Origin: Streptomyces coryli
GTDB lineage: Bacteria; Actinomycetota; Actinomycetes; Streptomycetales; Streptomycetaceae
Direction: 5' to 3'
Assembly (NCBI RefSeq): GCF_011044975.1
Contig: NZ_JAAKZV010000022.1
Location: forward strand, 1-58,726
DNA: 58,726 bases
Position 1 is the stretch's first letter, and every line of letters starts with the position of its first letter. Below, piece after piece: positions 579-39,419 of the stretch. Position numbers and translations under genes: made by a program. The notes beneath the pieces are model-generated. The model made no database searches. It saw nothing but the letters and a program-made list of their open reading frames with translations, and was not told the DNA's origin.

Positions 579-1087
579 CGCTACGCTCCCTGCGGTTGGC
601 CGCCACATTGCACAACGACGATCGTGACCAGCTCAGGTCACCGGCAGCGCGGTTGATCGACGACCGTGCGCCGTTTCCGTGGCTGAAGAAGCGCAGAAGG
701 CGCATGTGCTGCTGAATCCGCCTCCCTGTGGCTGATTCCCAATGTCATGGTTCGTTGCCCTGGTGCACCGGAGGCCACGCATGCTTGCTCTCTGTCGATG
801 GCGTGGGCTGGCTGAAGTGGTGGGCCCATCTGAGCGTGCGGTGGTCGGCGCAGTGCTTGTTCGCGTGCGTGCCTTGCAGGCGCTGAGGTGGCTCCGGGTG
901 TGATGCCGTGTGTCGTGGAGCGGAGATTTCTGGATTTCTGTCACGGCTGTCTGAATTTTGAGATTGCTTCTTCTGATGCTTCACACATGTGACTGAGTGT
1001 GTGTATGTTGTGACGCCTCCGCGTGGGGAGCGTGGGGGTTTACAGGCTTGTGTGGCCTGTGTGTTGCTCTGGGGAGGGCACGTGCGT
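579..1087. other. Intergenic region upstream of the RHS gene
   Basis: About 500 bp with no convincing gene on either strand. Minus-strand reading frames here have poor composition (Arg/Thr/Ser-rich shadows). It should hold the promoter of the RHS gene. A strong Shine-Dalgarno (GGGGAGGG, 1071-1078) sits at its right end. No clear hairpin or operator was seen. Confidence 0.4.
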
Positions 1088-15821: not shown

Positions 15822-15875
15822 CGACCAGGCACTTTTGCATCGTGGTCCGTGATGAGAGCCTGGGGAGGCCGGACG

Positions 15876-18800
15876 GTGACAGCTCAGTCAGGGTCGTCGG
15901 CACCGAGGCCGGGTGTGCCCAAGCCGGGCCCGCCCCGCCCGGCCCGGCAGTGGTTCCAGGAGCGTCCCTCGCCGTACCCATGGGAGCAGGACGCGCTGGA
16001 CCATGTGCGGGAGCTCATGCCGCAGGCCGAGCCGTTCCGTGCCTGGGCCACGTTCTCCTTCACCGCGATGTCCGGTCGCGTCAACGAGTGCGATCTGCTG
16101 GTCGCCGTTCCCGCCGGCCTCTTCCTCATCGAGCTCAAGGGTCATCCAGGGCAGCTCCGTAACACCGGGTCGACCTGGAACTTCCAGGGGCCCGACCGCA
16201 TGCGGACGATCAACAACCCGCTGCACCTGACCGACCTGAAGTCGAAGGAGCTGAAGAGCCAGCTCCTGTGGGCGGCTCGCAAGCTGGGCCTGTCCGAGCG
16301 GATGGTTCCGCGCGTCGAGCCCGCCGTGTTCCTGTCATCGCCCGACCTGGAAAGCCGTCTGGACGAGGTCCAGCAGATCAAGGTCTACGGCCGGGACGAC
16401 GGCGGCAGCGGCCTGAAGCGGATCTGGCAGGACTTCCTCGGGCTGCCTCCCGACCGTCCCGACCGGCGTATCACGCCGGAGTTCTCGCGGCACACCCTGC
16501 CGGAGCTGCTCAGGACGATCGGGATCCGCCAGTCCACGGCCCACCTCCGCTTCGGCGACGCCTGGAAGATGGAGCCGCATCCGCTTGACGCCGGACCCTC
16601 CTGGGAGGACCGCTTGGCCGTCCGGGACGACGGCCTTGTCCAGGAGGAAGGCCGGGTCCGTATCTACCTGGTGAGCCAGAAGGCGACGGAGGCGGCCCGC
16701 CGAGCCACCGATCGCGCCGCGCGCCGCGAGTACCAGGTGTTGCAGGGCATCACCCACCGCGGCATCGTCGACGCGCTCGATTTCCGCGAGCACCAGGGCG
16801 GGCCGGCGATCCTCTTCCGCCACCGGCACGGCGATCTCCGCCTCGACCAGTACCTGGACACCTACGGCGGCAGGCTCACGCCCGAGGTCCGCATGGACCT
16901 GGTCCGGCAGCTCGCCGAGGCGGCCCGCTATGCGCACAACCGCTCCCTTTACCACCGGGCGCTCGCTGCCCGGTCCGTCTACGTGTCGTTCCGGGCCGAA
17001 GGGGCGGCTCCCGAGCTGCGGATCACCGACTGGCAGACCGCGGCACGGGACTTCGACAGCAATGCCACCTTCTTCCGCTCCATCGGCGGCTCCGCCCTCG
17101 ACGCCGCCCTGATCGAGGACGCGGCCCGCGTCTACCTCGCCCCCGAGTCGGAGCAGCCGTACGCCGACCCCGCCGACCTGGACATCTTCGGCCTCGGCGC
17201 GGTCGCCTACCTGATCCTCACCGGCCGCCCACCGGCCACTCAGCGCAGCGACCTGGCCGAACGGCTCCGCAGTGACGGCGGCCTGCGCCTTTTCGCGGTG
17301 ACCGACGGCCTGCCCGACACACTCGACGACCTGGTCTTCCGGGCGACCCGCGCCGACGTCAACGAGCGGCTCGGCTCGGCCGAGGCGTTCTTGGACCTGC
17401 TGGACGAGGCGGAACGCGCCAGCATCCTCCCGGATTCACCGGCGGCGGCCTGCGTCGACCCGCTCGAAGCGGCACCCGGCCAGTCGCTCGACGCCGAGTG
17501 GACGGTACGCCGTGTCCTCGGTACCGGTGCCACGGCGCGCGCTCTGCTCGTGGAGCGGGCCACCGAGGACGAGGACGGCCGCACCCAGATCGATGAGCAC
17601 GTCTTCAAGGTCGCCCTCGACGAGGAGAAGGCGGGGCGGCTGCGCGCCGAGGAACGGGCACTGCGCAAGATCGGCGGCGGTTCCGTCGTCCGGCTGCGCG
17701 GAGACGGGCTGCGGGAGCTCGGCGGGCGGACCGTGCTGGAGCTGGAGTACTCCGGTGCGCAGTCGCTCGGCGAGCGACTGCGCGGCAAGGGGCGGCTCAC
17801 TTATCACGAGTTGGAGCGTTTCGCGGACGACCTGTTCCACGCCTTGGACCAGCTCGCCGGGCAAGGCGTGCGCCACCGCGACATCAAACCGGACAACTTC
17901 GGCATCCAGCGCCGCAAAGACCGTACCTGGCAGCTCAAGCTGTTCGACTTCTCCCTGACGGACGCCTCCGACCGGGACGTGAAGGCGGGAACGCGCGGCT
18001 ACCTCGACCCGTTCCTCGGCTCGATGCGTCGCGCCCATTACGACGACCACGCGGAGCGATACGCAGCCGCCGTCACCCTCCACGAGATGGCGAGCGGCGA
18101 GCGCCCGCTGTGGGGTGAGGGGCAGCTCGACCCGCTGACCAACGATTCGGCCGAACTCCACGTCGCCACCGAGCTGTTCGAGCCCGCGCTGCGTGAGGGG
18201 CTCACCGCCTTCTTCCACTGCGCGCTGCACCGCGACACCGAGCAGCGCTTCGACACGCTGCGGCAGATGTGGGACGCCTGGCGGGCGGTGTTCCGCGTGG
18301 CCGACGCGACCGCGCCGGCCACGACCCCCTCCACTGTGGGCACCTCGTCCGACGACCCGGAGAAGGCCCGCGACTGGGCCGCCGCGGCGGCCGACGTGAA
18401 GACGCCGCTGGACGCCGCCGGCCTGTCCCCGCGTGCCGTGTCGGTGGCCGGCCAACTGGGGGCGACGACGGTCGGGGAGCTGCTGGACATCCAGCCGTAC
18501 GCCATCTCCAAGGCACGCGGCGCGGGCGCCCTCGTCCGTAAGGAACTCAACCGGCGCCGCAAACAGTGGTCGGCGCTGCGCCCGGCGGCGCCGTACGCAC
18601 CCCGCCGCCCGACGCAGGACGGCACCGACGGCGCTGCCCCGCAGCCCACCCCCGGCGTCGGCGTCGGCGAGCCCAGCATCCTGTCGATAGACGACATGGC
18701 AGCGCTCCTCGCCCCCGAGACGGGCCGCAGAGGTTCCCACCGTGCCGACGTCGTACGCCTCACTCTGGGGCTGCCGCCGGACACCGGCGGGCTCTCCCCG

Positions 18801-20324
18801 CTCGGCGCCTGGCCCGTGCAGGCCCGGATCGCCGACCACCTGGGCATCAAGCAGACCTCCGTCTCCCGGCATCACCGGGGCGAGATCCGCAGGTGGGCGG
18901 AGGCCGACTGGCTGGACCCGGTCCGCACCGAGCTGGCCGAGATCCTCCAGTCCGTCGGCCGGGTGATGACCGACGACGAGGCCGCGGCTGAACTCCGGGC
19001 TCGCCACGGTGCCGGCTCGGACACACCCGAGCGAACGCTGGCCAGGTCTCTCGCCGTGGTCCGCGCCGCCGCCGACGCGGAAACCACGGAACGCCCCGAC
19101 GAGGGCCCCGCCGGGCAGCACGAGCCTCGCTTCGCCGTGCACCGGCGCGGCGAGACGGTCCTGCTCGCCGCCGAGTCCCTGCCGGGCACGGACGACCCCA
19201 GCCCGCGGGAGCTGGCGGACTACGCGGCGCTCCTCGCCCAGGCCGCCGAACGGCTGGCACGACAGGACCCGCTGCCGGGCCACGGCGAGGTCCTGCGCGT
19301 TCTGCGAGCCGTGCCCGCCCCTGACGGGCTCGCCCCGCTCGCCGACACCCGCCTGGTGTCCCTGGCCGCCGCGGCGGCTCCCGGCGTCGCGGCCACGCCC
19401 CGGCTGGAGCTGTACCCGCGCGACCTGAGCCTGGGACGGGCGCTGCGCATCTCCCAGGCGGGTGCCGGCGTGCGCCGGGACAGGGGTGTCACGGTCGCCG
19501 AGCTGGTGGCGCGGCTGCGCGCCCGGTTCCCGGGACTGGATCTGGTGTCGGGCTCCCGGGAACCCACTCATGTGGAACTCCTGGACGCTCTCGAAGGGGC
19601 GCGCTTCGACCTCGTGTACGACGACGAGGCCGAGAAGTTCTTCCCCCGGGCACCGGAGTCGACGGGCACCTGGAGTTCCAACGGCGCCTTCACTAGCTAC
19701 CAGCCGCCCACCCCGGTCACCCGGGCCGACCGGGAGGACCCGCACGGCCCGCTGCGGGAACGGCTCACCACCGTGGCGGACCGGGGCGGCTTCCTCGCCC
19801 TCACGGTGAAGCCGAACGCGTTCGCGGGAGCGGCGGAGACCGTGGCAGCCGCCTTCCCGGTCGAGGCGGTCGATCTGTCGGACGTGTTCCTCACAGCCTT
19901 CCGCGCCTTGGCCGAGGAGAAGGGCCAGGACTGGCGGAAGGTCCTGCGCGCCGACAGCCTCTCCACGCCCGGCAGCATCAAGCCAGGGCTGGCGTCCTTC
20001 GTCCGGGTGGTCTGGCAACGCGTGGAGGAGGCGGTCCTCGCCCGCGCCGACGCGCCGCGTATCGTGCTGTTCCTCCACGACGTCGGCCTGGTCGCCCGCT
20101 ACTGGGAGGAGGGCGGCCACGCCTTCCTGGTCCGGCTCCAGAACGCAGCCCGCCGCCCTGCCGACACGCCGCACGGCCTGTGGCTGCTGTGCGCGGTCGA
20201 GACACGCGCGCAGGAGCCGAAGCTGGATGGCCGGACGGTGGAGGTGATCGGCGGCGACGGCGAACGGGCGCACCTGGACGCGGAGTTCCTGGACTCGCTG
20301 CGGGTTCCGGCCGGGACGGGCTGA
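15876..20324 (+). CDS. pglW: PglW: NERD domain plus tandem protein kinase domains, BREX type 2
   Basis: 1482 aa from GTG 15876, chosen because GGGGAGG lies 7 bases upstream. An N-terminal NERD nuclease-like domain (about 60-165) has D73 and E86-L-K88. A first kinase-like domain (about 255-520) is degenerate: the HRD position reads HRA (360-362) and the DFG position DWQ, so it is a pseudokinase. The second kinase domain (about 538-795) keeps the VAIK-type Lys (HVFKVAL, K578), HRDIKPDN (667-674), DFS for DFG (691-693) and GTRGYLDP, so it should be an active Ser/Thr kinase. A long C-terminal region contains HTH-like segments (IADHLGIKQTSVSRHHRGEI). PglW is the kinase of the Streptomyces Pgl phage-growth-limitation system; its substrate is not settled by sequence. 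Convergent with the next gene (46 bp apart). Confidence 0.92.
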   Translation: MTAQSGSSAPRPGVPKPGPPRPARQWFQERPSPYPWEQDALDHVRELMPQAEPFRAWATFSFTAMSGRVNECDLLVAVPAGLFLIELKGHPGQLRNTGSTWNFQGPDRMRTINNPLHLTDLKSKELKSQLLWAARKLGLSERMVPRVEPAVFLSSPDLESRLDEVQQIKVYGRDDGGSGLKRIWQDFLGLPPDRPDRRITPEFSRHTLPELLRTIGIRQSTAHLRFGDAWKMEPHPLDAGPSWEDRLAVRDDGLVQEEGRVRIYLVSQKATEAARRATDRAARREYQVLQGITHRGIVDALDFREHQGGPAILFRHRHGDLRLDQYLDTYGGRLTPEVRMDLVRQLAEAARYAHNRSLYHRALAARSVYVSFRAEGAAPELRITDWQTAARDFDSNATFFRSIGGSALDAALIEDAARVYLAPESEQPYADPADLDIFGLGAVAYLILTGRPPATQRSDLAERLRSDGGLRLFAVTDGLPDTLDDLVFRATRADVNERLGSAEAFLDLLDEAERASILPDSPAAACVDPLEAAPGQSLDAEWTVRRVLGTGATARALLVERATEDEDGRTQIDEHVFKVALDEEKAGRLRAEERALRKIGGGSVVRLRGDGLRELGGRTVLELEYSGAQSLGERLRGKGRLTYHELERFADDLFHALDQLAGQGVRHRDIKPDNFGIQRRKDRTWQLKLFDFSLTDASDRDVKAGTRGYLDPFLGSMRRAHYDDHAERYAAAVTLHEMASGERPLWGEGQLDPLTNDSAELHVATELFEPALREGLTAFFHCALHRDTEQRFDTLRQMWDAWRAVFRVADATAPATTPSTVGTSSDDPEKARDWAAAAADVKTPLDAAGLSPRAVSVAGQLGATTVGELLDIQPYAISKARGAGALVRKELNRRRKQWSALRPAAPYAPRRPTQDGTDGAAPQPTPGVGVGEPSILSIDDMAALLAPETGRRGSHRADVVRLTLGLPPDTGGLSPLGAWPVQARIADHLGIKQTSVSRHHRGEIRRWAEADWLDPVRTELAEILQSVGRVMTDDEAAAELRARHGAGSDTPERTLARSLAVVRAAADAETTERPDEGPAGQHEPRFAVHRRGETVLLAAESLPGTDDPSPRELADYAALLAQAAERLARQDPLPGHGEVLRVLRAVPAPDGLAPLADTRLVSLAAAAAPGVAATPRLELYPRDLSLGRALRISQAGAGVRRDRGVTVAELVARLRARFPGLDLVSGSREPTHVELLDALEGARFDLVYDDEAEKFFPRAPESTGTWSSNGAFTSYQPPTPVTRADREDPHGPLRERLTTVADRGGFLALTVKPNAFAGAAETVAAAFPVEAVDLSDVFLTAFRALAEEKGQDWRKVLRADSLSTPGSIKPGLASFVRVVWQRVEEAVLARADAPRIVLFLHDVGLVARYWEEGGHAFLVRLQNAARRPADTPHGLWLLCAVETRAQEPKLDGRTVEVIGGDGERAHLDAEFLDSLRVPAGTG

Positions 20325-20370
20325 GTGTCAGCGGAGGGCTCCGGTCGATGTGTCTGTCAAAGTCGGCAGG

Positions 20371-21825
20371 TCAGGACTTGCGGGGCACTCCGCCCTTGCG
20401 GCCGATGTTGAACGCCAGCCGGTACACGTCGGGGAGGTCGAGTGCGCCACTGGTGCGTTTGGTCAGGACGCCGAGTTCCACCAGTTCCTCTATGAGCGCG
20501 AAGAGATCGTCGGCGTCACGGGGGCCGCTGTTCTCGTCATCGTCCTCCCGCATGCGGCGCAGGATCTCCGTCAGTCCACCATGCACCCAGTACTGACGGA
20601 CGTGGGACGGCTCCATGGGCACCTGCCCGCCGTCCAACTGCTCTATGGCGGCGGCAGCCCAGCCGATGTCCTCCTTCAGCTCCTCCACTCGCACCCGCGA
20701 CGCCTCGTGCAGACTTTCCCGGAGTGCCTCGTAGTGCAGCGGATACGGCTGCGTGGCGTACCGCTCCGTCGTCAGGGCCGCGGCCGAGCGCAGGGCGAGC
20801 AGCCAGGTCCTCGGGCTCACCCGTCCTTTGCCGTCCTGGAGGTGGTTCGGGACCCAGGTGAAGGTGTGGCCCTTGCGCCGGTCAGTGCCCATGTACGGCC
20901 CGGCCAGCGAGACGAAGACCTTCTCCTGGCACGTCTCGTCGGCGATCACGTCGACCGGCGCAATGAACCGCCCCTCGCCCTCCACCCGCCACTCGCCGTA
21001 CTGGGCCCGGAACTTCTTCGCCTCGATGCTCGGATCGTTCCCCAGCCGGTGGAAGAGAAGCCCGTAGAGGTTCTCCCGGCTCCATTCCAGGTCGGCCGCG
21101 TTCGCCCCGAGCTTGGAGGCGTCCGGGAACCTCTTGGGCGCGCTGTCGTACATGTCCGGGCGTACGAAGATCTTGGCGCGCAGCGCCCCTGTGGTCAGCC
21201 GCAGCTCCAGAGCCACCTGGAAGAGCGCCGACACCAGCCGGTCGGCCGTCGCCCGGTCCGCGTGGAGATGGTCCAGGGCGTCGAAGAGCAGCACGCGCGT
21301 CTCCCCGCTGTCCCGGGCCTCTCGGTCGGCCTTGCGCAGTGCGTCCTCGTAGGCGTCCTCGTGCTCCTCGGCCCACCGGATGCGATCGGCCCAGTCGGGG
21401 ATGCTCGCGATCTCCGGCACGCCGAGCGCCATCATCACGACCGAGTACCAGAAGAACTCGAAGACCTCGGGGCCGGACACTTCGCGCAGCAGCCTGGCGA
21501 TCTTGCGTTTGCTCGGATACGGAGTGTCGCTGCCACCCCCTGTGGTGAACCCGGTGGTCACCCTGACCCGCCGCAGCCGCGGCATCATGTACGACCTCTC
21601 GGCCACCGCCCGCAGCTCGGGGTCGATCAGTGCCTTGGCCCAGTAGGTCTTGCCGGTGCCTCGGGCTCCCCTGACCACGGTCACGTCCGGGTCGAGCGCG
21701 AGACGGTGGCTGGACGGCGTGAACAGCCGCCGCAGGTCGGGGCCGTCCGTGTCCGCGTCGAGCGCGACACCGAGGGCCCTGGTGATCAGGGTGCGGTACT
21801 CGTCGGTGGTCGGTGCGGCGGTCAT
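20371..21825 (-). CDS. P-loop ATPase, third gene of the nested HEPN/KGGVGR operon
   Basis: 484 aa. Walker A is VVRGARGTGKTYW (GxxxxGKT at residues 53-60) and a Walker B-like strand is TRVLLFDALDHL. Arg and acidic residues through the middle fit an AAA+/STAND-type fold. The C-terminal ~80 residues (VRQYWVHGGLTEILRRMRED, IEELVELGVLTKRTSGALDLPDVYRLAF) look like a winged helix of the kind that follows AAA ATPase domains. The start codon overlaps the stop of the KGGVGR gene by 4 bases (21822-21825), so the two are translationally coupled. I do not recognise a named family. It is encoded opposite to the BREX genes on both sides. Confidence 0.75.
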   Translation of the reverse strand: MTAAPTTDEYRTLITRALGVALDADTDGPDLRRLFTPSSHRLALDPDVTVVRGARGTGKTYWAKALIDPELRAVAERSYMMPRLRRVRVTTGFTTGGGSDTPYPSKRKIARLLREVSGPEVFEFFWYSVVMMALGVPEIASIPDWADRIRWAEEHEDAYEDALRKADREARDSGETRVLLFDALDHLHADRATADRLVSALFQVALELRLTTGALRAKIFVRPDMYDSAPKRFPDASKLGANAADLEWSRENLYGLLFHRLGNDPSIEAKKFRAQYGEWRVEGEGRFIAPVDVIADETCQEKVFVSLAGPYMGTDRRKGHTFTWVPNHLQDGKGRVSPRTWLLALRSAAALTTERYATQPYPLHYEALRESLHEASRVRVEELKEDIGWAAAAIEQLDGGQVPMEPSHVRQYWVHGGLTEILRRMREDDDENSGPRDADDLFALIEELVELGVLTKRTSGALDLPDVYRLAFNIGRKGGVPRKS

Positions 21826-23228
21826 GAGGACTCCGGGGCGGGATGCGGTTTCGGCAGAAGACGCTCCACCGTAGTCGTGAAGGTCCGGTACGCGGCCTCG
21901 ACAAACGGCAGCTCGGGCCAGTCCCGGCTGCGCAGGGGGTCAAGGCCCACCAGGTCGTTGCCGAAGAGGATGGGGATGGGGGCGTGCGGCGCTTCGTCGT
22001 CTTCCAGGGGAGGGTGGTACAGCTCCTCTCCCTCGTCGTCCGCGCCGTCCTCGTCCGTGTCGAGCTGGTCGTAGAGTGTGTCAGCGAACAACTCCTGCGC
22101 GCGGTCCCGCAGGGCGGGCAGCCGCTTCGCGTCCCCGGCGGAGTGGAACATGGCCGCCACGATCCGCAGCCGCTCCCTCAGCTCCCGGGCCAGGGCCGGG
22201 CGCTGCTGCCACTGCTCGAACAGCATCTTGTAGCCCTCCCACGTGGAGGGATTGTCCACCGCGAACAGCAGCGCGAGCCCGCTGAGATGGGTCAGCGTGA
22301 CCGCAGCGATGTCGTGCATCCCGGCCCTGCTGTCCAGCAGGACGACGTCCGGTGGCCGGGATAGCTCGGCGACCTGGTCCTCGCAGGCGGCGATCGCCTC
22401 CTCCAGCCGCGCGGCGAACGGTCGCTCGCCATCCCCGGGGTTGAGCCCGGCGAGGTCGCTGTAGATGCGGTTCAGCTTGGCGAGGTAGTCGTACGGCTCC
22501 CCCTCCAGCGGCGAGCCGCCCGCCGGCGCCAGCCACACCTCCCCGTTGCCCTTGAACGGCAGCGCGGAGCTGCGCGCCACCAGCTCCAGACCGTCGGTGT
22601 TGCCGACACCGCCTTCGATCAGGTGGTCGACGATGCCGTGGCGGGGGATACCGGCGGGGTCCTCCAGGAGGTTGGAGACGCCCGGGGATTCCAGGTCGAG
22701 GTCTACCACGAGTACGCAGCGGCCCGTTCCGGCCAGGTACCGGGCGAGGACGGCGGTGGCGGTGGTGCGCCCCACCCCGCCCTTGAAGCCGTACAGCGCC
22801 ACCCGCCGGTCGCGGCGGCGGGAGGCTCCGGGGGAGGGCGCGGGGGTGCTCCGGGCCCAGTCGGTGCCGATGACGGTGCGCTCCAGGGCGTGGACACTGC
22901 CAGCCCCGGTGCTGGTGGCCGGCCGGGGGCTGACCTCCACGCGGTCGTCGGCGTTGAAGTACAGCGCGGGCGCGAAGAGCTTGTCGCCGAAGAGGAGGGG
23001 TTCGAGCCCGGTGAAGGGGCGGGTGGCGGCCTTGAACGAGTCACGGAGGGCCACGACGTTTGCGTCGTCGTGCGCGAGGGAGCGTCCTCGGTCGTCGATG
23101 AGCAGGCAGGCCCTGCCGAGCACATCCCGGGTGACGACGACGTCCATGCCGAACTGTGCGGCGGCCTGCCGGGCATGGTCGAGGGCGGCCTGCCAGGCGG
23201 TGTCGAACCGTGTGCAAGAACGGCTCAT
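21822..23228 (-). CDS. KGGVGR-variant ParA/MinD-type ATPase, second gene of the nested operon
   Basis: 468 aa. An N-terminal domain of about 140 residues (FGMDVVVTRDVLGRACLLIDD) precedes a deviant Walker A, FKGGVGRTTATAVLARYLA. The signature lysine K149 is kept, but the usual P-loop Lys of GKTT is Arg (R154). VLVVDLDLESPGVSNLL and VVLLDSRAGMHDIAA match the switch and Walker B regions of ParA/MinD SIMIBI ATPases. A Glu/Asp-rich tail follows. The KGGVGR variant is a known ATPase subfamily found in accessory loci. It overlaps the HEPN-like gene upstream (23225-23228) and the ATPase gene downstream by 4 bases each. A role in sensing or positioning within a defence complex is inference only. Confidence 0.8.
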   Translation of the reverse strand: MSRSCTRFDTAWQAALDHARQAAAQFGMDVVVTRDVLGRACLLIDDRGRSLAHDDANVVALRDSFKAATRPFTGLEPLLFGDKLFAPALYFNADDRVEVSPRPATSTGAGSVHALERTVIGTDWARSTPAPSPGASRRRDRRVALYGFKGGVGRTTATAVLARYLAGTGRCVLVVDLDLESPGVSNLLEDPAGIPRHGIVDHLIEGGVGNTDGLELVARSSALPFKGNGEVWLAPAGGSPLEGEPYDYLAKLNRIYSDLAGLNPGDGERPFAARLEEAIAACEDQVAELSRPPDVVLLDSRAGMHDIAAVTLTHLSGLALLFAVDNPSTWEGYKMLFEQWQQRPALARELRERLRIVAAMFHSAGDAKRLPALRDRAQELFADTLYDQLDTDEDGADDEGEELYHPPLEDDEAPHAPIPILFGNDLVGLDPLRSRDWPELPFVEAAYRTFTTTVERLLPKPHPAPESS

Positions 23229-23743
23229 GCGCGGGTCCTCGTTCCCAGGATGCCAGCCTGTTCATGGGCGGCGATGAGGGCGTACGCGGCCTTCAGGTGC
23301 CGGTCGACACCCGCCTCGGTGATGGCGGTGCCGTCGCAGTAGCGGTCCGCGACGTCCCAGCCGGCGAACGGGTTCTCCCAGATGAGTTGCGTGAAAAGCG
23401 CTCCCGACCCGCCTCCCCGGCGGCGGTGGGCGACGGCGGTGAGGTGTTCCCACAGCTCGGGGAGGTGACCGTGCTGCTTCTTCCACTTCATCGTGTTGCC
23501 AAGACGGTACAGAGCCTCTACTTCCGGGTTCTCCGGCATGTTCCGCACGTTGAGTCGGGACCCCAGGAAGTCGATGAGAATTGCCTTCACAGCGCACTCC
23601 GCCGCCAGGCCGGCGAGATGATCAGCGGATATCCGCAGGTCCTCCTCAGCGGCAAGCCTGGCCGCGTGATAGTGGTTCCTGCTGGCCACTGCGAACGCGG
23701 GTGGCTGTGTCGCGGAGGGTGTCGAGGCCGTCACGGCGATCAC
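23225..23743 (-). CDS. HEPN-like small protein, first gene of the nested operon
   Basis: 172 aa from GTG 23743. The helical segment RISADHLAGLAAECAVKAIL resembles the core helix of HEPN domains (AAE-x-ALKALL pattern) and contains R37-x4-H42, which could be the RX4-6H RNase signature, although that motif usually lies nearer the C-terminus. The C-terminal half has DRYCDGTAITEAGVDRHLKA and is also helical. HEPN proteins are often RNases or toxins in defence modules. The call rests on eye matching only. The gene is divergent from pglX, with 152 bp between the starts, and heads a tightly overlapped operon. Confidence 0.55.
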   Translation of the reverse strand: MIAVTASTPSATQPPAFAVASRNHYHAARLAAEEDLRISADHLAGLAAECAVKAILIDFLGSRLNVRNMPENPEVEALYRLGNTMKWKKQHGHLPELWEHLTAVAHRRRGGGSGALFTQLIWENPFAGWDVADRYCDGTAITEAGVDRHLKAAYALIAAHEQAGILGTRTRA

Positions 23744-23895
23744 TTTAACGACGTGGTCAAGGCGGCTGCGGTGGATTTCCCGGATCGCGACGACCCTGCG
23801 CCGTAGGACGGGGGCGCGGGTGCGGCAGGATGGGAGTCCGGTCCGCGGCTGACGCGGTGGGGCGCTGACGTGGTGCAGGGAGAAGGAAGCGAAGA

Positions 23896-26800
23896 GTGAC
23901 GGTGACGACTACGGGCACGGACAAAGTGGCCCTGCTCAAGGACCTGAAGAAGCTGGTCGTCGCAGTGGAGGACGATCTGCGGTCCCGCAGCGCGTCCGAG
24001 GAGAAGTTCCGCACCCGCCTGGATCGCGAGTGGCGAGAGGCGAAGGAGGCCCGGCGTACCGCCCTGTCCTACCCGGCCTGGCGTGACGAGCGCGTCACAC
24101 AGGCAGCGGTGGCGTGGGTGCTGGGCTGCGTCTTCGTCCGCTTCTGCGAGGACAACGGCCTGATCGACGAGCCGTATCTCGCCGGCCCCGGTGAACGCCT
24201 CGCCGAGGCGGAGGCCCGGCACGAGGCCCACTTCCGCACCTACCCGCACCAAAACAACCGCGACTGGCTCATCGCGGCGTTCCACCACCTGGCGAGCACC
24301 AACGAGACGGCTGCCGGTCTCTTTGACGAGCGGCACAACCCCCTGTGGGGACTGACCCCCGGCTACGAGACGGCGACGGAACTGCTGATGTTCTGGCGCC
24401 GCTGGGACGCGGACGGTGAGATCCGCTACGACTTCACCGACCCCGAGCGGGACACCCGCTTTCTCGGTGACCTGTATCAGGACCTGAGCGAGCACGCCCG
24501 CAAGACATACGCGCTGCTGCAAACCCCCGAGTTCGTCGAGGAGTTCATCCTCGACCTCACCTTGGAGCCGGCGGTCGCTGACGACGGGCAGGGCTTCGGC
24601 CTGAATCCCGTGTGGACCGGCCCCGACGGCAGGGAACGCCGCGGCCTGCGCACCATCGACCCCGCGTGCGGCTCCGGCCACTTCCTCCTCGGCATCTTCC
24701 ACCGCCTGCTGGACAAGTGGCGCCAGGCGGAGCCCGGTACTGACGACTGGACGCTGGTCCGCCGGGTCCTGGAGTCCGTCCATGGCTGCGACAAAAACCC
24801 CTTCGCCGCGAGCATCGCCCGCTTCCGGCTTCTGGTCGCCGCAATGCGCGCGGCGGGCACGCGAAGGCTGGCGGACGCGCCTCCGTTCCCCATCAACGTG
24901 GCCGTGGGCGACTCGCTGCTGCACGGGCGGGACGCGGCGGGCATCCAGACCGACCTGGACACGCTGTTCGCGGAGGCGGTCGTGGGGCACGAGGAGGGGG
25001 AGACATACGCGTACGCCACGGAGGACGTGTGGGAGTACGCGAAGCGGGTGGACCTGCTGGGGCGGGGGTCGTATCACGTGGTGGTGGGGAACCCGCCGTA
25101 CATCACGGTGAAGGACAAGCAGGAGAAGGAGAACTACAAGAAGAGTTACGACGCATGCGTAGGGCAGTACGCGCTCTCTGTGCCCTTCGCGCAGCGGCTC
25201 TTTGAGCTGGCCGTCAAGGGGGTTGGCGGAGCCACAGGCGGTGGGGGATTCGTCGGCCAGATCACTGCGAACTCGTTCATGAAGCGAGAGTTCGGCAAGA
25301 CGTTGATCCGGAACTTCTTCCACCAGCGGGTTGAGCTATCGCACGTGATCGATACCTCCGGTGCGTTTATCCCTGGCCATGGCACCCCGACAGTGATTCT
25401 CGTGGGGCGTAATCGAACGCCGAGTGATGCCAGGAAGGTGCGGGCGGTCCTCGGGGTGAGAGGGGAACCTTCTGAGCCTAAGGTTGCGGCAGAGGGGAAG
25501 GTCTGGCAGTCGATCGTTAGCCTGGTGCATCGCCCGGGCAGCGGATCTGAGTGGGTCACGGTAGAGGATTTGCCACGGAAGCGACTCGCCGAATTTCCAT
25601 GGTCGTTGAGCGGTGGCGGGGCCGGTGATGTGGTTCAGGCTCTGACGCGAGGAAGCAGTCGACGTCTGGCTACTCTCGTGGAGAGTATCGGTTTCTGTGC
25701 TGTCACCAGAGAAGACGACGCGTATATGGTCGGTCACGGGTTTGGGCGACGTAATCGCATAAGTGATCAACATGTCCGTCCCCTTCTCGGTGGGGCGGAA
25801 GTGCGGGAATGGGGACTCGGTGGAGGTGTCGAATCCATCTTCCCGTACTCCTCCCTGCGAAAAGTGGCTGCGATTGACACGGCCGCGGAGAGGGTCCTTT
25901 GGAAGTTCAGGACTCTGCTGAAGCTTCGACGTGCACTTTCCGGCACGCAGGAAGAGCAGGGGCTAGAATGGTTCGAGTACTCCAGTTTCTCACCACAGCG
26001 CTACTGGGCGGATCTGCTGATTACCTTCGCGTTCGTCTCTACTCATAACCACTTCTCCTTGCGTCGGGCTGACGAAATTTTCATTCGAAGCGCTCCCGTG
26101 ATCAAGCTGCCCGAGAGGGCCGGGGAGGATGAGCACCTGGAGTTGTTGGGGGTGCTCAACTCTTCGGCGGCTTGTTTCTGGCTGAAGCAGGTCAGCCAGG
26201 ACAAGGGCAACCGGGGAGGCGAGCGCTCGACCGGGCGATACGCCTGGGAGAGCTTTTACGAGTTCACCGGCACCAAGCTGCAAGAATTCCCCCTACCAGC
26301 CAAGCTCCCGCTCCACCTAGGCCGCGTCCTCGACGCCCAGGCGCAGAAGCTGGCAACGTTGGAACCGTCGGCCGCGGCAGCGACCAGCGTGCCCACGCGG
26401 CACGCGCTCGATGACGCCAAAGCCCAGCACTCCAAGAATTGGCGGCGCATGATCGCTCTGCAAGAGGAGCTGGACTGGCAGGTTTACGGTCTCTACGGGC
26501 TGCTCAGTGACGCCGAGGCCGCCCAGACCGTGACACCCTCCGACCGAATTGCCGAACTCCCCGAAATCAAGCTCGGTGCGAGGGGGTTCGAGATCGCTAT
26601 CGCGCCTCGCGCCGAGGAGGACGAGGCGGTGAGCGAGTGGTTTCGGCGCCACGAATCCACACACGTCACTGAGATCCCCGCCCACTGGCCGGACTGGTAC
26701 CGCGAGATCGTCCAGGCCCGTATCGCCCTGATCACCAGCCGCAAGGACATCGCCCTCATCGAGCGCCCGGAGTGCAAGCGCCGCTGGGCGACCGACCCGT

Positions 26801-27639
26801 GGGAGAAGAAGGAGCGCGTCGCGCTGCGGAACTGGCTGCTGGACCGTTGCGAGGACGAGGACCTGTGGTTCGAGGTGCGTGAGGGGATGCGCTACCCCCG
26901 GCCGCTGACCGTCAACAACCTTGCCGACCGGCTCCGTACCGACCCCGACTTCACGTCCGTCGCCGCGCTCTACGCCACCGACCACATCAAGAAGCCGGAC
27001 CTCCCGCTCGCGCAGATCCTCAACGAGATCATCGCTGATGAGCACGTGCCCTACCTCGCCGCGATGCGCTACAAGGACTCCGGCCTGCGTACCCGCGGAG
27101 AGTGGGAGAAAGTCTGGGAGAAGCAGCGCGAGGAGGACCGTAAGGGCACGCGGCTCGACATCGACTCGCCGACCAAGTACAAGTCCTCCGACTTCCTCAA
27201 GCAGTCCTACTGGACCCACCGCGGCAAGCTCGACGTCCCCAAGGAACGGTTCATCTCCTACCCGGAGGCGGGCCCGGACAGTGACTCCACGCTGATGCTC
27301 GGCTGGGCCGGCTGGGACCACAAGGACCAAGCGCTGGCGCTCACCGACCTGATCGACAAGCGTGTGAAGAGCGATGCATGGGGCGCCGACCGGCTCGTTC
27401 CTCTGCTCGCAGGATTGCGCGAGGTCATGCCCTCGGTGCACCAGTGGCACAGCGCTGAGGACGACGAGTGGGAGGGCTCGCCGGCCGAAGACCTGGAAGC
27501 GGAGTATCAGAAACTGCTGCGCACGCACGGTGTGAGCGAGGCGCAGATGAAGGACTGGCGTCCGGTACGGAAGACGCGTCGGCGGAAGGCCGTACAACGC
27601 CGGGAGACGATCGAGCAGACCAAACTGGACGACGCGTAG
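23896..27639 (+). CDS. pglX: PglX: adenine-specific DNA methyltransferase, BREX type 2
   Basis: 1247 aa from GTG 23896. Class I SAM methyltransferase motifs are clear: motif [14 protein letters not shown] (from D255) and the N6-adenine catalytic NPPY (399-402). The N-terminal helical region ([12 protein letters not shown]) is typical of PglX. The centre (residues about 420-800, 25150-26300) is the target-recognition part, and its DNA has visibly lower GC and rarer codons than both flanks, suggesting it was exchanged. The C-terminal ~400 residues return to typical composition ([24 protein letters not shown]). PglX marks host DNA so that BREX spares it. No long G tract suitable for phase variation was seen. 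Confidence 0.93.
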
Positions 27640-27991: not shown

Positions 27992-30900
27992 ATGCCGACC
28001 ACAGAGCTGTTCCTCCGCGATGTCATCGACATCAAGGAGGACGTCCATGCGGGCGATTTCAAGGTCGACCTTTCTCAGGGCTTCCACGAGGCCGATGAGC
28101 GGGTGGCGGAGTACGTCGTCACCGATCAGCTGCAGAAAGCGTTCCGCAGGGCGCTCGGCGTCGTTGCCAAGGCCGTCCGTACGGGGGACTCGCACGCCGC
28201 CTATCTGCACGGCTCGTTCGGCGCCGGTAAGAGCCACTTTCTGACCGTGCTGCACGCCGTGCTCAACGGCCACGAGGGGGCTGTGGACAAGCGGGGGCTG
28301 AAAGAGGTCGTCGCCGAGCACCGGGACTGGCTGGGCGGCAGCCGGTTTCTGATGATCCCCTACCACCTGGTCGGGTCGACCGACCTCGATTCGGCGCTGC
28401 TTGGCGGGTACGTCCACGCCGTGCGGGAGCTGCGCCCGGAGGCGGCGACTCCCGCCGTCTACCGTTCTGACGCGCTCCTCGCCGACGCGGACCGGCAGCG
28501 GACGTTCCTCGGCGACGACGACAAGTTCCGACAGTGGCTCGTCGCCGGGGCGGCGGCCGCCGCCCCGGGCGGGGACGGGATGTCCGGCGTGGACGACGAG
28601 GACGACCTGCCGGGCATCGACGGCGGAGCCGGCCTGCCGGCCACGGGCGGCTGGAGCACCGCCGAGCTGGACCGGGCCTTCGCCGCGCCGCCCGGCAGCG
28701 AGGAGCGGGAGCGGCTGGTGTCGGCGCTGCTGTCCGGGCCCATGGCCGCGTATACGCAGGCCGCCCGCGGCGACGCGCAGTCCTTCATCCCGCTGGAGAA
28801 CGGCCTGAAGGTCATCTCCCGCCACGCCCAGTCGCTGGGCTACGACGGCGTCGTCCTCTTCCTTGACGAGCTGATTCTGTGGCTGCAGGCACACATGGGC
28901 GACCAGGACTTCGTCCGCGATCAGGTGCAGCGGCTGGTCAAGCTGATCGAGTCCGCCGACAGCGGCCGGCCCGTTCCGATCGTGTCGTTCATCTCCCGTC
29001 AGCGTGACCTGTCCCAGCTCATCGGCTCCGACGTAGCCGGCGCCGACGTGCAGAACCTGGAACAGCAGGTCGACTACCTCGCCGGCCGGATCGACGTGGT
29101 GGAGCTGGAGGACAGCAACCTCGTCGAGATCATCAGACATCGGGTGCTGGCCCCCCGCCGAGGCATGGAGCAGGCGCGCGACGACGCGTTCAAGGTCGTC
29201 GAGTCGTCGCGGGACGAGGTGCGGCAGGTGCTCCTCGACGCTCAGGGACGCACCGAGGCTAGCTGGGACGACTTCCGCACCCTGTACCCGCTGTCCCCGG
29301 CGCTGCTCAACGTACTGGTCGACCTCTCCGGCGCGCTCCAGCGCGAGCGGACCGGTCTGAAGCTGGTGCAGGAGCTGCTGCGGCGCCACCGCGACGAGCT
29401 GCGGCTCGGCCAGCTCATCCCCATCGGCGACCTGTGGGACGTGATCGCCGCCCGGACCGGTGAGGCGTTCACCGCCAAGCTCCGCAAGGAGTCGGAGATC
29501 GCGCACCGCTTCCACGCCCGCGTCCGCGAGCACCTGCTGACCAAGTATGGCTCCGAGGACGACAAGCGGTTCCGGACCGACGACCGGCTCGTCAAGACGC
29601 TGCTGCTGGCCTCCCTCGCCCCCAACGTGCCCGCCCTGACCCGGCTCACCGGCGGCCGGCTCGCTGCGCTCAACCACGGCACGATCAGGACCCGGGTGGG
29701 CGACGCGGGCGCCGTCGCCGTCAAGCGGCTGCAGGAACTCCAGGCCGAGGGCTTCGACGGCGAGCTGCGCAGCGAGGGCGACTCCGCCGACCCCGTCTTC
29801 CACCTGCATCTGTCCGACCTGGACGTAGAGCCGCTGCTGGAGGAGGTGCAGGGCGTCGCCGACCAGGACGGCTACCGCCGCCAGTGGATCAAGGACCAGC
29901 TGTGGGCGGCGCTGGGCATCCCAGACACCCAGGCGTTCGTGTGTGAACGGACCGTCGTCTGGCGCGGCACCAAGCGCACTGTCGAGTTCGTCTTCGGTAA
30001 CGTCCGCGACCCGCACCTGCCCGACGCCGAGTTCGCGCCGCAGACTGAGGGCAACATCCGCTGCGTCTTCGACTACCCCTTCGACGGCCACGACCACTCG
30101 CCGATGGACGACGCGCAGCGGGTGGAGCGGCTGAAGCGTGCCGGGAAGACCGCACCGACGATCGTCTGGCTGCCGCACTTCCTGTCCGAGCAGAAGGCCC
30201 GCGGCCTCGGGCGTCTACTGAAGATCAACTATCTTCTGGAGCGCGACCGGCTCGACGATCACACAGCGACCCGCCCCGCCGAGGAACGCATCCAGATCCG
30301 CAACCAGCTCAAGGCATCCCGTGACAGCCTGACCACCCAGCTCACCGACGCGCTGCTGCAGCTGTACGGCATCAACAAGGCCGAGCCGGGCACCGCGGGA
30401 GCCGAGGTCCACGAGGGCCACCACCTCATGTCGCTCCAGCCGGGCTTCACTCGCACCCGGCCCGAACCGGCGGTCGGCTTCGAGGAGAACCTCTTCCTGC
30501 TCGCCGACGGGCTGCTCAGCACCCGCCACCCCAAGCACCCCGACTTCGACCCGCGGCTCACCCGCAAGGCCGTTACCACCCGCGAGCTGAAGACCGCCCT
30601 GGAATGGATCACGAAGGCGATGGAGGACGGCTCCCGGCGTGTCGTGGTCGACAGCCACCAGCTGCCCGTCGTCCGCCGGATCGTGCACGCCCTCCAGCTC
30701 GGAGAGGTCCACGACGGGCCGCTGAATGTCACCACCGACTGGCGCCTGCGTATCAACAAGAAGGCCGCCGAGACCCCCGACGCCGGCCCGGACCTGTCCG
30801 TGGAGGACATCCGCGACTGGATCGTGGAGCTCGGCTACACCGGCCTGGACCGCCACGTCAGCAACCTGATCATCGCCACGTACGCCCTGCTCGACGACCG

Positions 30901-31969
30901 CACCTGGGTCTACCAGACCTCGCCGCTGCCCAAGGCCCCGGAGCTGGAGCGGATTGGTCCCGGATACGGGCTGAGGGCCGTGGAGCTGCCCACCGAGGAC
31001 GAGTTCCACACAGCGCTCGGCCGCGCCGGGAAGATCTTCGGCAGGACCGTCTCGCGCGTCCTGTTCGCCCGCAACGTTGCCCGGCTCGCCGAAGGCGTGC
31101 GCGCGGTCGCGGAGGAACACCGCGTGGCCCTCGGCGAGGCACGCACCCTGCTGACGGAGCACGCCCACCACTTGGGACTGACCGGCGTCGACGCGCCCCG
31201 CTTGAAGTCCACCAAGGCAGCCGCCGACCTCGTCGCTCGACTGCTGCGCACCACTGAACCGGCCGCATGCGTGCGGGAGCTGGCCGCCGCCGCGTACGAC
31301 GTGACCGACGAGGAGATCGCAGGCGCCCTGCGGCACGCCCCCGAGGTCGCCACCGCGCTGCGCGGCACTCAGTGGTCCCTGCTGGAAGATGTGCGCCGTG
31401 ACCTCGCCGTACGCCAGGACGGCCTCGGCGAGCGGGCGGCTCGGTTCCTAGACGAGGTGCACCGCACCGCCCGCGAGCACGAGCACACCGTTTCGCTCGT
31501 GCCGGTCCTGGACCGGCTCCCGGACACCGTCATGGCCCTGATGCGCGAGGCCACCCGCCTCGCCCAGCCCGCCCAGCCGTCCACTGAGCCCGCGGCGCCG
31601 GTCACGCCGGAGCCGACCGCCGAGGACGTCCGCCTCACCGACCACGGCAAGCCCTCCGTCCCCTCGACGCCCACCCAGGAACAGCCCTCCAGGCCGGACG
31701 ACGCCTCCCGCGGCGGGGCCGACGCACAAACCGTGGTCTCGGTACAAGCTGGTCGCCGGCGCGCCACCCACCTCGTCGAACCCACCCAGCTGGAGGTGTC
31801 CCTGGCCGCCACGGTCGCCGAGATCGACGCGGAGATCCGCGCCTACCTCACCGACCACCCCGGCACCCGCATCCAGGTCACCTGGCAGCCGGTCACTGAC
31901 ACCGGGTCCGGTACCGGCGCATCCGCCGGAACCGAGGCGGAGCCGGACGGCGAAGGGACCGCCGGCTGA
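27992..31969 (+). CDS. pglY: PglY: large P-loop ATPase, BREX type 2
   Basis: 1325 aa from ATG 27992. Walker A is HGSFGAGKSHFL (GSFGAGKS, residues 74-81) and Walker B is VVLFLDELILWL (D292, E293). The size and early-placed P-loop match PglY/BrxC-type ATPases, which are core BREX components. The far C-terminus after about residue 1180 is Pro/Thr/Glu-rich and likely a flexible linker (APVTPEPTAEDVRL), followed by a short folded tail (VEPTQLEVSLAATVAEIDAEI). The stop TGA shares its final A with the start of pglZ, so translation is coupled. Confidence 0.92.
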   Translation: MPTTELFLRDVIDIKEDVHAGDFKVDLSQGFHEADERVAEYVVTDQLQKAFRRALGVVAKAVRTGDSHAAYLHGSFGAGKSHFLTVLHAVLNGHEGAVDKRGLKEVVAEHRDWLGGSRFLMIPYHLVGSTDLDSALLGGYVHAVRELRPEAATPAVYRSDALLADADRQRTFLGDDDKFRQWLVAGAAAAAPGGDGMSGVDDEDDLPGIDGGAGLPATGGWSTAELDRAFAAPPGSEERERLVSALLSGPMAAYTQAARGDAQSFIPLENGLKVISRHAQSLGYDGVVLFLDELILWLQAHMGDQDFVRDQVQRLVKLIESADSGRPVPIVSFISRQRDLSQLIGSDVAGADVQNLEQQVDYLAGRIDVVELEDSNLVEIIRHRVLAPRRGMEQARDDAFKVVESSRDEVRQVLLDAQGRTEASWDDFRTLYPLSPALLNVLVDLSGALQRERTGLKLVQELLRRHRDELRLGQLIPIGDLWDVIAARTGEAFTAKLRKESEIAHRFHARVREHLLTKYGSEDDKRFRTDDRLVKTLLLASLAPNVPALTRLTGGRLAALNHGTIRTRVGDAGAVAVKRLQELQAEGFDGELRSEGDSADPVFHLHLSDLDVEPLLEEVQGVADQDGYRRQWIKDQLWAALGIPDTQAFVCERTVVWRGTKRTVEFVFGNVRDPHLPDAEFAPQTEGNIRCVFDYPFDGHDHSPMDDAQRVERLKRAGKTAPTIVWLPHFLSEQKARGLGRLLKINYLLERDRLDDHTATRPAEERIQIRNQLKASRDSLTTQLTDALLQLYGINKAEPGTAGAEVHEGHHLMSLQPGFTRTRPEPAVGFEENLFLLADGLLSTRHPKHPDFDPRLTRKAVTTRELKTALEWITKAMEDGSRRVVVDSHQLPVVRRIVHALQLGEVHDGPLNVTTDWRLRINKKAAETPDAGPDLSVEDIRDWIVELGYTGLDRHVSNLIIATYALLDDRTWVYQTSPLPKAPELERIGPGYGLRAVELPTEDEFHTALGRAGKIFGRTVSRVLFARNVARLAEGVRAVAEEHRVALGEARTLLTEHAHHLGLTGVDAPRLKSTKAAADLVARLLRTTEPAACVRELAAAAYDVTDEEIAGALRHAPEVATALRGTQWSLLEDVRRDLAVRQDGLGERAARFLDEVHRTAREHEHTVSLVPVLDRLPDTVMALMREATRLAQPAQPSTEPAAPVTPEPTAEDVRLTDHGKPSVPSTPTQEQPSRPDDASRGGADAQTVVSVQAGRRRATHLVEPTQLEVSLAATVAEIDAEIRAYLTDHPGTRIQVTWQPVTDTGSGTGASAGTEAEPDGEGTAG

Positions 31970-34800: not shown

Positions 34801-36137
34801 GCGAGCCCGCTTCCGTGAGCGCGGTCCGCCGCCGCGAGGTCATCGACGCCCTGCGGCGCGGCACCGTCCCGCAGTCCGGCCTCGACCTGTTCGCGGTCGG
34901 ACTGGATCGGTTCGAAGCCGCTCTGGACGACGACCTGGCCACCGTCACCCGCGGCGGTGCCGCCTTCCACGCCGTCCGCGGCGACTACGGCTCCGGCAAG
35001 ACCTTTTTCGCACGCTGGCTGGCCGAACGCGCCAAACGCGCGGGACTCGCCACCGCCGAAGTGCAGATCTCCGAGACCGAGACACCGCTGCACCGGCTGG
35101 AGACCGTCTACCGCCGGCTCACCGAGCGCCTGGCCACCGCCACCCACCAGCCCAGCGCACTGCGTGCGGTCGTCGACTCGTGGTTCTACACCCTGGAGGA
35201 GGAGGTCCTCGACGGCCCGGAGGCCGACGAGATCGACGAGGACGACGAGGAAGCCCTCGCCGAGGCCGTGGACACGCTGATGGAACGCCGGCTGGCCGAC
35301 GTCGCCCGCACCACACCCGCGTTCTCCGCCGCCCTGCGCGGCTACCGCCGTGCCGTCACCGCCGGGGACGGCGCCACGGCGGAAGCCCTGATCGCCTGGC
35401 TCGGCGGCCAGAAGTCCGTGGCCGCCTCCGCCCGGCGGGCCGCAGGAGTACGCGGAGACCTGGACCACTTCGCCGCGCTCGGCTTCCTCCAGGGCCTGCT
35501 GACCGTGCTGCGCGACTGCGGCCACCCGGGGCTGCTCCTCGTCCTCGACGAGACGGAGACCCTGCAACGCGTCCGCGGCGACGTTAGGGAGAAGGGCCTC
35601 AACGCACTGCGCCAGCTCCTCGACGAGATCGACGCTGGCCGCTTCCCCGGGCTTTTCCTCGTCATCACCGGAACACCCGCGTTCTACGACGGCCAGCAGG
35701 GCGTCCAGCGGCTGCCTCCCCTGGCCCAGCGGCTCGCCACCGACTTCACGACCGACGCCCGCTTCGACTCCCCCCGTGCAGTCCAGCTCCGCCTGCCCGG
35801 CTTCGACCTGCCGAGCCTGGGAGAACTCGGCAAGAAGGTGCGGGACCTCTACCGTGACGCGGCCCGCCACCCCGATCGGGTCACCGCCCGGGTCGACGAC
35901 GCCTACGTCGGCGAACTCGCCACCGCCGTCGCCGGAGGTATGGGCGGCAACGTCGGCATCGCACCCCGTGTCTTCCTCCGCAAGCTCGTCGCTGACGTCC
36001 TTGACCGCGTCGACGAGTTCGAGGGCTTCGACCCGCGCAAGCACTACCAGCTCACCCTTTCGGCAGTCGAGTTGACGGACACCGAACGCAACGCAGCCGC
36101 CGACCGGGCGGACGACATCGAGCTGAACCTGCCGTGA
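34797..36137 (+). CDS. brxD: BrxD: AAA ATPase, BREX type 2
   Basis: 446 aa from GTG 34797, overlapping the end of pglZ by 4 bases. Walker A is GDYGSGKTFFARWLA (62-76) and Walker B LLLVLDETETLQR. The N-terminal segment (RRREVIDALRRGTVPQSGLDLFAVGL) is typical of the BREX-associated ATP-binding protein BrxD (DUF2791-type). The final ~60 residues (GGNVGIAPRVFLRKLVADVLDRVD) form the helical lid. It is expected to work with BrxHI and PglY on DNA; the exact step is not known. Followed by brxHI with a 4-base overlap. Confidence 0.9.
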   Translation: MSEPASVSAVRRREVIDALRRGTVPQSGLDLFAVGLDRFEAALDDDLATVTRGGAAFHAVRGDYGSGKTFFARWLAERAKRAGLATAEVQISETETPLHRLETVYRRLTERLATATHQPSALRAVVDSWFYTLEEEVLDGPEADEIDEDDEEALAEAVDTLMERRLADVARTTPAFSAALRGYRRAVTAGDGATAEALIAWLGGQKSVAASARRAAGVRGDLDHFAALGFLQGLLTVLRDCGHPGLLLVLDETETLQRVRGDVREKGLNALRQLLDEIDAGRFPGLFLVITGTPAFYDGQQGVQRLPPLAQRLATDFTTDARFDSPRAVQLRLPGFDLPSLGELGKKVRDLYRDAARHPDRVTARVDDAYVGELATAVAGGMGGNVGIAPRVFLRKLVADVLDRVDEFEGFDPRKHYQLTLSAVELTDTERNAAADRADDIELNLP

Positions 36138-39148: not shown

Positions 39149-39419
39149 GGTACGTGCGATCAAGCACCGTTCAGCTTCTGACCTGGCGCTTCCCGGCCGT
39201 TGGACGCAGTGAGCATGTTGGTTCTACGCGCATTCTCCGTGGGAGGCCGCATTGACTCGCCCTGCAAGGTGCCAAGGACGGTGAGGATTGTCATGCTCCA
39301 GCGCTTGAGGTTCGCCGTGTCGCCAGCGTGTGAGGGCAGTTCATGACCCCAACTGAGCCGTGAGATCCGGAGACTTGCACACGTGCGTGACTCAGCACTG
39401 CAAGGATGGTGTGGGGGTG

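What the first reader, a model, noticed from the sequence alone, without database searches (positions are those of the whole stretch)
20371..23743. Unnamed three-gene operon (HEPN-like, KGGVGR ATPase, P-loop ATPase) nested antisense inside a BREX type 2 locus
Three genes with 4-base start/stop overlaps run opposite to the BREX genes, exactly between pglW and pglX. They encode a helical HEPN-like protein with a possible R37-x4-H42, a ParA/MinD-type ATPase whose P-loop Lys is Arg (KGGVGR, R154) and a second ATPase with GARGTGKT plus a likely winged-helix end. A possible toxin/RNase with two NTPases is the layout of a sensing-and-effector defence module. Its position inside BREX suggests either a backup system that fires when BREX fails or a BREX accessory. 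I know of no named system with this trio.
Basis: partly seen in the sequence, partly recalled or inferred. Interest (0 to 1): 0.8.

Follow-up and report, generated by a model that had tools for sequence, protein, structure and literature searches.

The report
Three-gene module nested in BREX
Three overlapping genes sitting backwards inside a bacterial anti-phage (BREX) locus match a listed defence candidate called PDC-M28, for which I found no published test; they look like a two-ATPase switch controlling a small HEPN-type effector, and close relatives sit inside BREX and related defence systems again and again.

Summary
Genes A (23225-23743), B (21822-23228) and C (20371-21825) run antisense between pglW and pglX of a BREX type 2 locus, with ATGA overlaps at both junctions. 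The trio is not unnamed: PADLOC-DB 2.0 lists it as candidate PDC-M28A/B/C (E 1e-26, 2e-117, 3e-146). I found no functional report. A most likely has a HEPN fold (best matches HEPN chains, Z to 12), but R37-x4-H42 is not conserved (13 of 65 relatives); E49, K53, H93, R134 and Y135 are (65 of 65), resembling the alternative site described for AbiV/AF0298. B has KGGxGR in 70 of 70. C is a STAND/ORC-Cdc6-type ATPase. Of 69 genome loci, 32 lie in BREX-2, 2 in BREX-1, 2 in a DUF499/DUF1156/PLD system; 33 lie elsewhere or on short contigs, some beside housekeeping genes. In 343 Streptomyces genomes, 19 of 22 trios are inside BREX-2. A two-gene relative fuses B and C. Best reading: a self-contained, often BREX-embedded, abortive-infection-type module. 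The mechanism is inferred; no experiment tests it.

The parts
23225..23743 (-). Gene A, 172 aa, HEPN-fold protein (PDC-M28A); likely true start GTG 23734. Invariant G45, E49, C50, K53, H93, W129, R134, Y135
21822..23228 (-). Gene B, 468 aa, ParA/MinD-like KGGVGR-variant ATPase (PDC-M28B); K149GGVGR154
   Evidence: NF047398 E 7.9e-54; PDLC04559 E 1.7e-117; K149, G150, G151, G153, R154, D176, D178, D299 in 70 of 70
20371..21825 (-). Gene C, 484 aa, STAND/ORC-Cdc6-type AAA+ ATPase with C-terminal winged-helix-type region, Sll1717 family (PDC-M28C); Walker A G53..G56.G58K59, Walker B F181 D182, R222
23744..23895 (.). Divergent intergenic region between A and pglX (presumed promoter region of both)
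   Evidence: Gene positions; no sigma-70-like site in a simple scan of 19900-24100, so function is inferred
15849..20324 (+). Host BREX-2 gene pglW
   Evidence: NF033442 1564.9 bits, cut-off 990
23896..27639 (+). Host BREX-2 gene pglX
   Evidence: NF033451 1742.4 bits, cut-off 400
27992..31969 (+). Host BREX-2 gene pglY
   Evidence: NF047891 E 1.7e-275, 917 bits, below cut-off 1700; PDLC02488 E 0
31969..34800 (+). Host BREX-2 gene pglZ
   Evidence: NF033446 772.9 bits, cut-off 200
34797..36137 (+). Host BREX-2 gene brxD
   Evidence: NF033438 672.8 bits, cut-off 350
36134..38269 (+). Helicase, taken as brxHI
   Evidence: Helicase families below their cut-offs; name by position in the operon

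Best explanation
The trio is a self-contained defence candidate, PDC-M28, nested in the BREX-2 locus and most likely of the abortive-infection kind. Proposed working: C, a STAND/ORC-type ATPase with a winged-helix-type end, senses a cue of infection (for instance on DNA) and switches nucleotide state. C acts together with B, a ParA/MinD-like ATPase whose P-loop Lys is always Arg, so it probably binds ATP and hydrolyses it slowly or not at all. The B-C complex holds A, a HEPN protein, inactive. On triggering, A attacks or blocks RNA/translation through an E49/K53/H93/R134/Y135 site rather than a canonical RX4-6H site. Shown by computation: the families and likely folds, the invariant residues, the fixed gene order, the B-C fusion in relatives, purifying selection, and repeated placement in BREX-type systems. 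Inferred: sensing by C, complex formation, the activity of A and any anti-phage effect.
For: All three proteins match PDC-M28 models. [quoted passage not shown] Pfam HEPN_AbiV hits 18 of 65 members at E up to 1, best 2.7e-5. C resembles CED-4, plant NLR and ORC/Cdc6 ATPases and BrxC. B-like and C-like domains share one chain (906-1069 aa, stop to stop) in 5 of the 7 weak-hit genomes read, with an A-like gene upstream in 4 of those 5. 19 of 22 Streptomyces trios lie in BREX-2; other loci lie in BREX-1 and a DUF499 system. dN/dS 0.09-0.39.
Confidence: 0.55

Rival explanations
1. BREX accessory or regulator: the trio tunes BREX (expression, loading or activity) and has no immunity of its own.
For: In Streptomyces, BREX-nested trios fall in one pglX clade: 18 of 28 rows of that clade carry it and 0 of 38 rows outside (a chosen part of the hits). 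The insertion site is constant within sub-clades. C's fold is related to BrxC.
Against: Present without BREX in many loci, in BREX-1 and DUF499 hosts too, and absent from 8 loci within the same pglX clade.
Confidence: 0.2
2. Cargo or addiction module: a toxin-control cassette that uses BREX loci and gaps beside housekeeping genes as safe sites, with no main role in phage defence.
For: Found beside tyrosine recombinases on plasmids (L003, L005) and beside housekeeping genes. The pglW-pglX gap takes other cargo, e.g. a DUF4011/MTES_1575 helicase-nuclease.
Against: Placement inside BREX-1, BREX-2 and DUF499 systems recurs. Two conserved NTPases are more than a simple toxin-antitoxin pair needs (inference).
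Confidence: 0.15
3. Non-immune cellular function: a ParA-like/ORC-like pair acting on DNA or localisation with a non-catalytic HEPN adaptor.
For: B and C resemble ParA/MinD and ORC/Cdc6; canonical RX4-6H at the R134 column in only 7 of 65; housekeeping neighbours.
Against: Nesting in defence loci, presence in only 22 of 343 Streptomyces genomes, and invariant E/K/H/R/Y in A.
Confidence: 0.1

Closest known systems
PADLOC-DB candidate PDC-M28 (A, B, C)
   Same: All three genes match nearly end to end
   Different: No difference in gene content seen; PADLOC's table gives no function, and no paper in the library names PDC-M28
AbiV and AF0298-type HEPN proteins
   Same: HEPN-type fold; a conserved His between helices 2 and 3, E-x3-K and a later basic residue
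   Different: Sequence link is weak; AbiV is recalled as a single-gene system, whereas A comes with two NTPases
PrrC/RloC: HEPN effectors kept in check by an NTPase or a restriction system
   Same: HEPN effector with NTPase control and (PrrC) a restriction-system host (PMC3710099 passages)
   Different: NTPases here are ParA-like and STAND/ORC-like, not ABC; control is not shown
HEPN and other backup effectors beside BREX (PMC12839542)
   Same: Effectors nested in BREX loci, including HEPN
   Different: The passages read describe stand-alone HEPN or HEPN fused to MNT, not this trio; its supplements were not available here
KGGVGR-variant ATPases (NF047398) and Sll1717 ATPases (NF047389)
   Same: B and C pass these NCBIfam cut-offs, C narrowly
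   Different: These models describe a domain and a subfamily, not a system

Membership tests
PDC-M28 (PADLOC) | Matches to the A, B and C models, adjacent | tested here: met
   E 1.1e-26, 1.7e-117, 2.5e-146; adjacent
PDC-M28 (PADLOC) | Anti-phage activity | not testable with these tools
   No functional report found (searches)
HEPN superfamily | HEPN helical fold | tested here: met
HEPN superfamily | Canonical RX4-6H motif | tested here: not met
   At the R134 column in 7 of 65; R37 with H42 in 13 of 65
[quoted passage not shown]
   H93 lies between helix 37-59 and helix 96-107, R134 in helix 131-135; both 65 of 65. Which modelled helix is 'helix 3' is my assignment; spatial closeness not measured
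AbiV family (PF18728) | Profile match and homology | tested here: inconclusive
   18 of 65 members at E up to 1, best 2.7e-5, the window's own A none; hhalign probability 11%
ParA/MinD family | Deviant Walker A KGGxxK[ST] with P-loop Lys (motif recalled) | tested here: not met
   P-loop Lys is Arg in 70 of 70, signature Lys K149 kept in 70 of 70
KGGVGR-variant ATPase NF047398 | Score over curated cut-off | tested here: met
   182.9 bits, cut-off 90
STAND/ORC-Cdc6 AAA+ ATPases | AAA+ core with Walker A/B and a following winged-helix-type region | tested here: met
   Foldseek TM-scores are low and the winged helix is read from whole-length alignments to ORC/CED-4, not folded alone
STAND immune sensors (NLR/Avs type) | C-terminal repeat sensor domain | tested here: not met
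   C ends at 484 aa; no repeat family among its Pfam hits
BREX type 2 host locus | pglW, pglX, pglY, pglZ, brxD, brxHI in order | tested here: met
   pglY below its NCBIfam cut-off; brxHI as a helicase by position

The most novel reading that the evidence does not exclude
PDC-M28 is a guard of BREX-family systems: B and C monitor the host BREX (or its DNA substrates), and when a phage disables BREX the HEPN protein A is released and stops translation through a non-canonical E/K/H/R/Y site, using an ATPase whose Arg P-loop makes it a nucleotide-locked sensor rather than a motor. The same three parts also exist as a two-gene form with B and C fused.
Probability: 0.25. Interest if true: 0.78.

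Novelty: new member of a known kind. Interest (0 to 1): 0.5.

Why it matters
It turns a database label without function into a concrete, testable machine: named families, named residues, a B-C fusion that predicts a complex, and host systems in which to test it. If it guards BREX, it would be a case of layered immunity written into one locus, comparable with PrrC in a type I restriction system.

Tried and rejected
R37-x4-H42 as active site: rejected by conservation. C as a BrxD relative: only 23 columns around the P-loop align. Viral carriage: no relative of B in viral contigs with a single-protein query, which finds close relatives only; none of C in phage records. Promoter or terminator by simple scan: nothing. 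Close DNA match in plasmids: none. PDB sequence matches for the A and C profiles: none convincing. Simple two-class split of Streptomyces BREX-2 by PglW score: incomplete, because some PglX N-termini are intermediate; replaced by a PglX tree. A triple fusion A-B-C in L207: not supported. Defence-island test of neighbours: 127 predicted neighbour proteins of loci then classed as stand-alone were scanned at once; some defence families appear (only 25 of 148 shown), but the gene calls include spurious ORFs and the table gives no locus, so I draw no conclusion. Weak or missing structural rows exclude no fold.
Full report
WHAT IS THERE. Three genes lie on the minus strand between pglW and pglX: A 23225-23743, B 21822-23228, C 20371-21825. 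Each junction is an ATGA overlap. C converges on pglW with 46 bases between stops; A and pglX diverge across 152 bases. The host is BREX type 2 (pglY below its NCBIfam cut-off, brxHI by position). Relatives begin A nine bases further in, so the start is probably GTG 23734.

IT HAS A NAME. PADLOC-DB 2.0 lists all three as PDC-M28A, B and C (E 1.1e-26, 1.7e-117, 2.5e-146). PDC entries are described as candidates from a 'guilt-by-embedding' approach, with validation pending for most (PMC12988326, passages); the approach is that of Payne et al., bioRxiv 10.1101/2024.01.29.577857, which I saw only as a reference and a citation in PMC12255303 (passages). Whether PDC-M28 itself was found inside BREX I could not see. 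PDC-M28 does not occur in the paper library, and a search for papers joining six terms for the parts found none. The 2026 BREX survey PMC12839542 was read in passages and in part 1 of section 35; these do not mention the trio.

GENE B. It passes NF047398, 'KGGVGR-motif variant AAA ATPase'. K149, G150, G151, G153, R154, D176, D178 and D299 are present in 70 of 70, R301 in 69 of 70. The Arg is thus a fixed trait of the family, not an accident of this genome. Slow or absent hydrolysis is inference.

THE TRIO RECURS. A scan of genome contigs with a C profile gave 69 loci from 114 pattern matches; one motif was used, so more distant C genes would be missed. B is next to C in 66 of 69; the three others are cut by contig ends. 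A is found in 62 of 69; of the seven without, six are cut by contig ends and in one (L041) no A is detectable. A-B and B-C junctions are 4-base overlaps in 38 of 62 and 39 of 66. Order A-B-C on one strand held in every locus where the genes were seen. Placement: 21 Streptomyces/Kitasatospora loci in BREX-2 between pglW and pglX (14 antisense L009-L022, 7 sense L023-L029; L014 and L029 show pglW only); 11 Proteobacteria loci in BREX-2 in the pglX-pglY gap, sense (both neighbours seen in 8, one in L055, L060 and L062); 2 in BREX-1 (L033: BrxC, PglX and BrxL over NCBIfam cut-offs, PglZ below; L035 by similarity to L033); 2 in a DUF499/DUF1156/PLD-helicase system (L048, all three over cut-off; L054 by similarity); 33 elsewhere or on short contigs. 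Housekeeping neighbours confirmed by Pfam: MnmA and adenylosuccinate lyase at L030, YebC at L032, DnaB at L041 and, in an extra Streptomyces locus, GroEL at L108. In plasmids C matches 20 records; of the 8 read three have the trio in BREX-2 (L001, L004, L006), four have it without BREX in the stretch read (L003, L005, L007, L008) and one has C alone (L002).

STREPTOMYCES SAMPLE. In 343 genomes of the genus of L009's genome, C matches below E 1e-80 in 27 and B below 1e-100 in 22; all 22 B lie beside a C. Of the five C without B, four stand alone (G191, G029, G132, G135) and one (G171) is a remnant with an A-like piece. BREX-2 PglX is in 86 of 343, 83 over the cut-off. Of the 22 trios, 17 lie between pglW and pglX (9 antisense, 8 sense), 2 between pglX and pglY in antisense (L111, L112) and 3 outside BREX, two of these within about 1.5 kb of groEL. 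A PglX tree of 66 rows (a chosen part of the hits, with the window) puts all 18 trio rows in one clade of 28; 10 rows there (8 loci, two entered twice) and all 38 outside have no trio; at least 3 changes (FastTree). In three of the 8 trio-free loci the pglW-pglX gap holds a large ORF, shown for L183 to be a DUF4011/DUF3320/MTES_1575 helicase-nuclease and alike by eye in L193 and L194.

HISTORY. On a B+C tree of 73 rows the antisense pglW-pglX trios form one clade (99), the Proteobacteria pglX-pglY trios group with one non-BREX row (L047, upstream side unseen) among them, and BREX against non-BREX needs at least 6 changes. That tree still counted the BREX-1 and DUF499 loci as 'alone', used a quick method and has long branches; the count cannot tell gains from losses. 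I read it as several entries or moves followed by inheritance with BREX. dN/dS against five close relatives is 0.09-0.39 for A, B and C.

A FUSED RELATIVE. Some weak C hits in Streptomyces lie in long chains. Of seven weak-hit genomes read, five (L207-L211; L209 overlaps L120) have one chain of 906-1069 aa, stop to stop, with B-like and C-like parts; two (G066, G332) have only short C pieces. Three fused chains were checked by NCBIfam: AAA_KGGVGR over cut-off in 3 of 3, Sll1717 in 2 of 3. An A-like gene lies upstream in 4 of 5 (E 2e-8 to 4e-3) and keeps E, K, H and R-Y by eye. This predicts that B and C act in one complex.

READING. The evidence fits a self-contained module with a HEPN end-effector and a two-ATPase control, favoured inside BREX-type systems. 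Whether it guards BREX, assists it, or merely lodges there is open. Counter-evidence is the 33 loci outside recognised systems, the weak sequence tie of A to known HEPNs, and the absence of any test.

Noticed in passing
window 12986-14959 (+): Large serine recombinase (Recombinase, Resolvase and zinc-ribbon domains) just upstream of pglW, suggesting that the BREX island may be mobile.
   Followed up: no
window 39360-43001 (+): 1213-aa protein with an AAA_16 match below its cut-off and many TPR repeats downstream of BREX, a STAND-like layout that could be another defence gene.
   Followed up: no
window 989-8986 (+): 2665-aa RHS/YD-repeat protein with a pretoxin HINT domain, the layout of a polymorphic toxin; described only.
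   Followed up: no
L183 3918-8882; L193 7824-14603; L194 3239-9987: The pglW-pglX gap of related BREX-2 loci carries large ORFs in place of the trio, in L183 a DUF4011/MTES_1575 helicase-nuclease: the gap looks like a cargo site.
   Followed up: partly
L064 11379-13345; L069 8319-9389: Other cargo next to the trio in the pglX-pglY gap: PDC-M25A/B pair and a Fic protein.
   Followed up: partly
L113, L114, L115, L116: C-like gene without a detected A or B in Streptomyces: a solo sub-family of unknown partner.
   Followed up: no
L015 11480-12880 and look-alikes in L016-L018: About 467-aa gene between C and pglW with no Pfam or PADLOC match for the L015 copy.
   Followed up: partly
L030, L031, L034, L061; L032, L052, L056: Stand-alone trios sit at the same housekeeping site in related species: mnmA-purB in Methylococcaceae, beside yebC (ruvC by eye) in Hydrogenophilales and one other proteobacterium.
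   Followed up: partly
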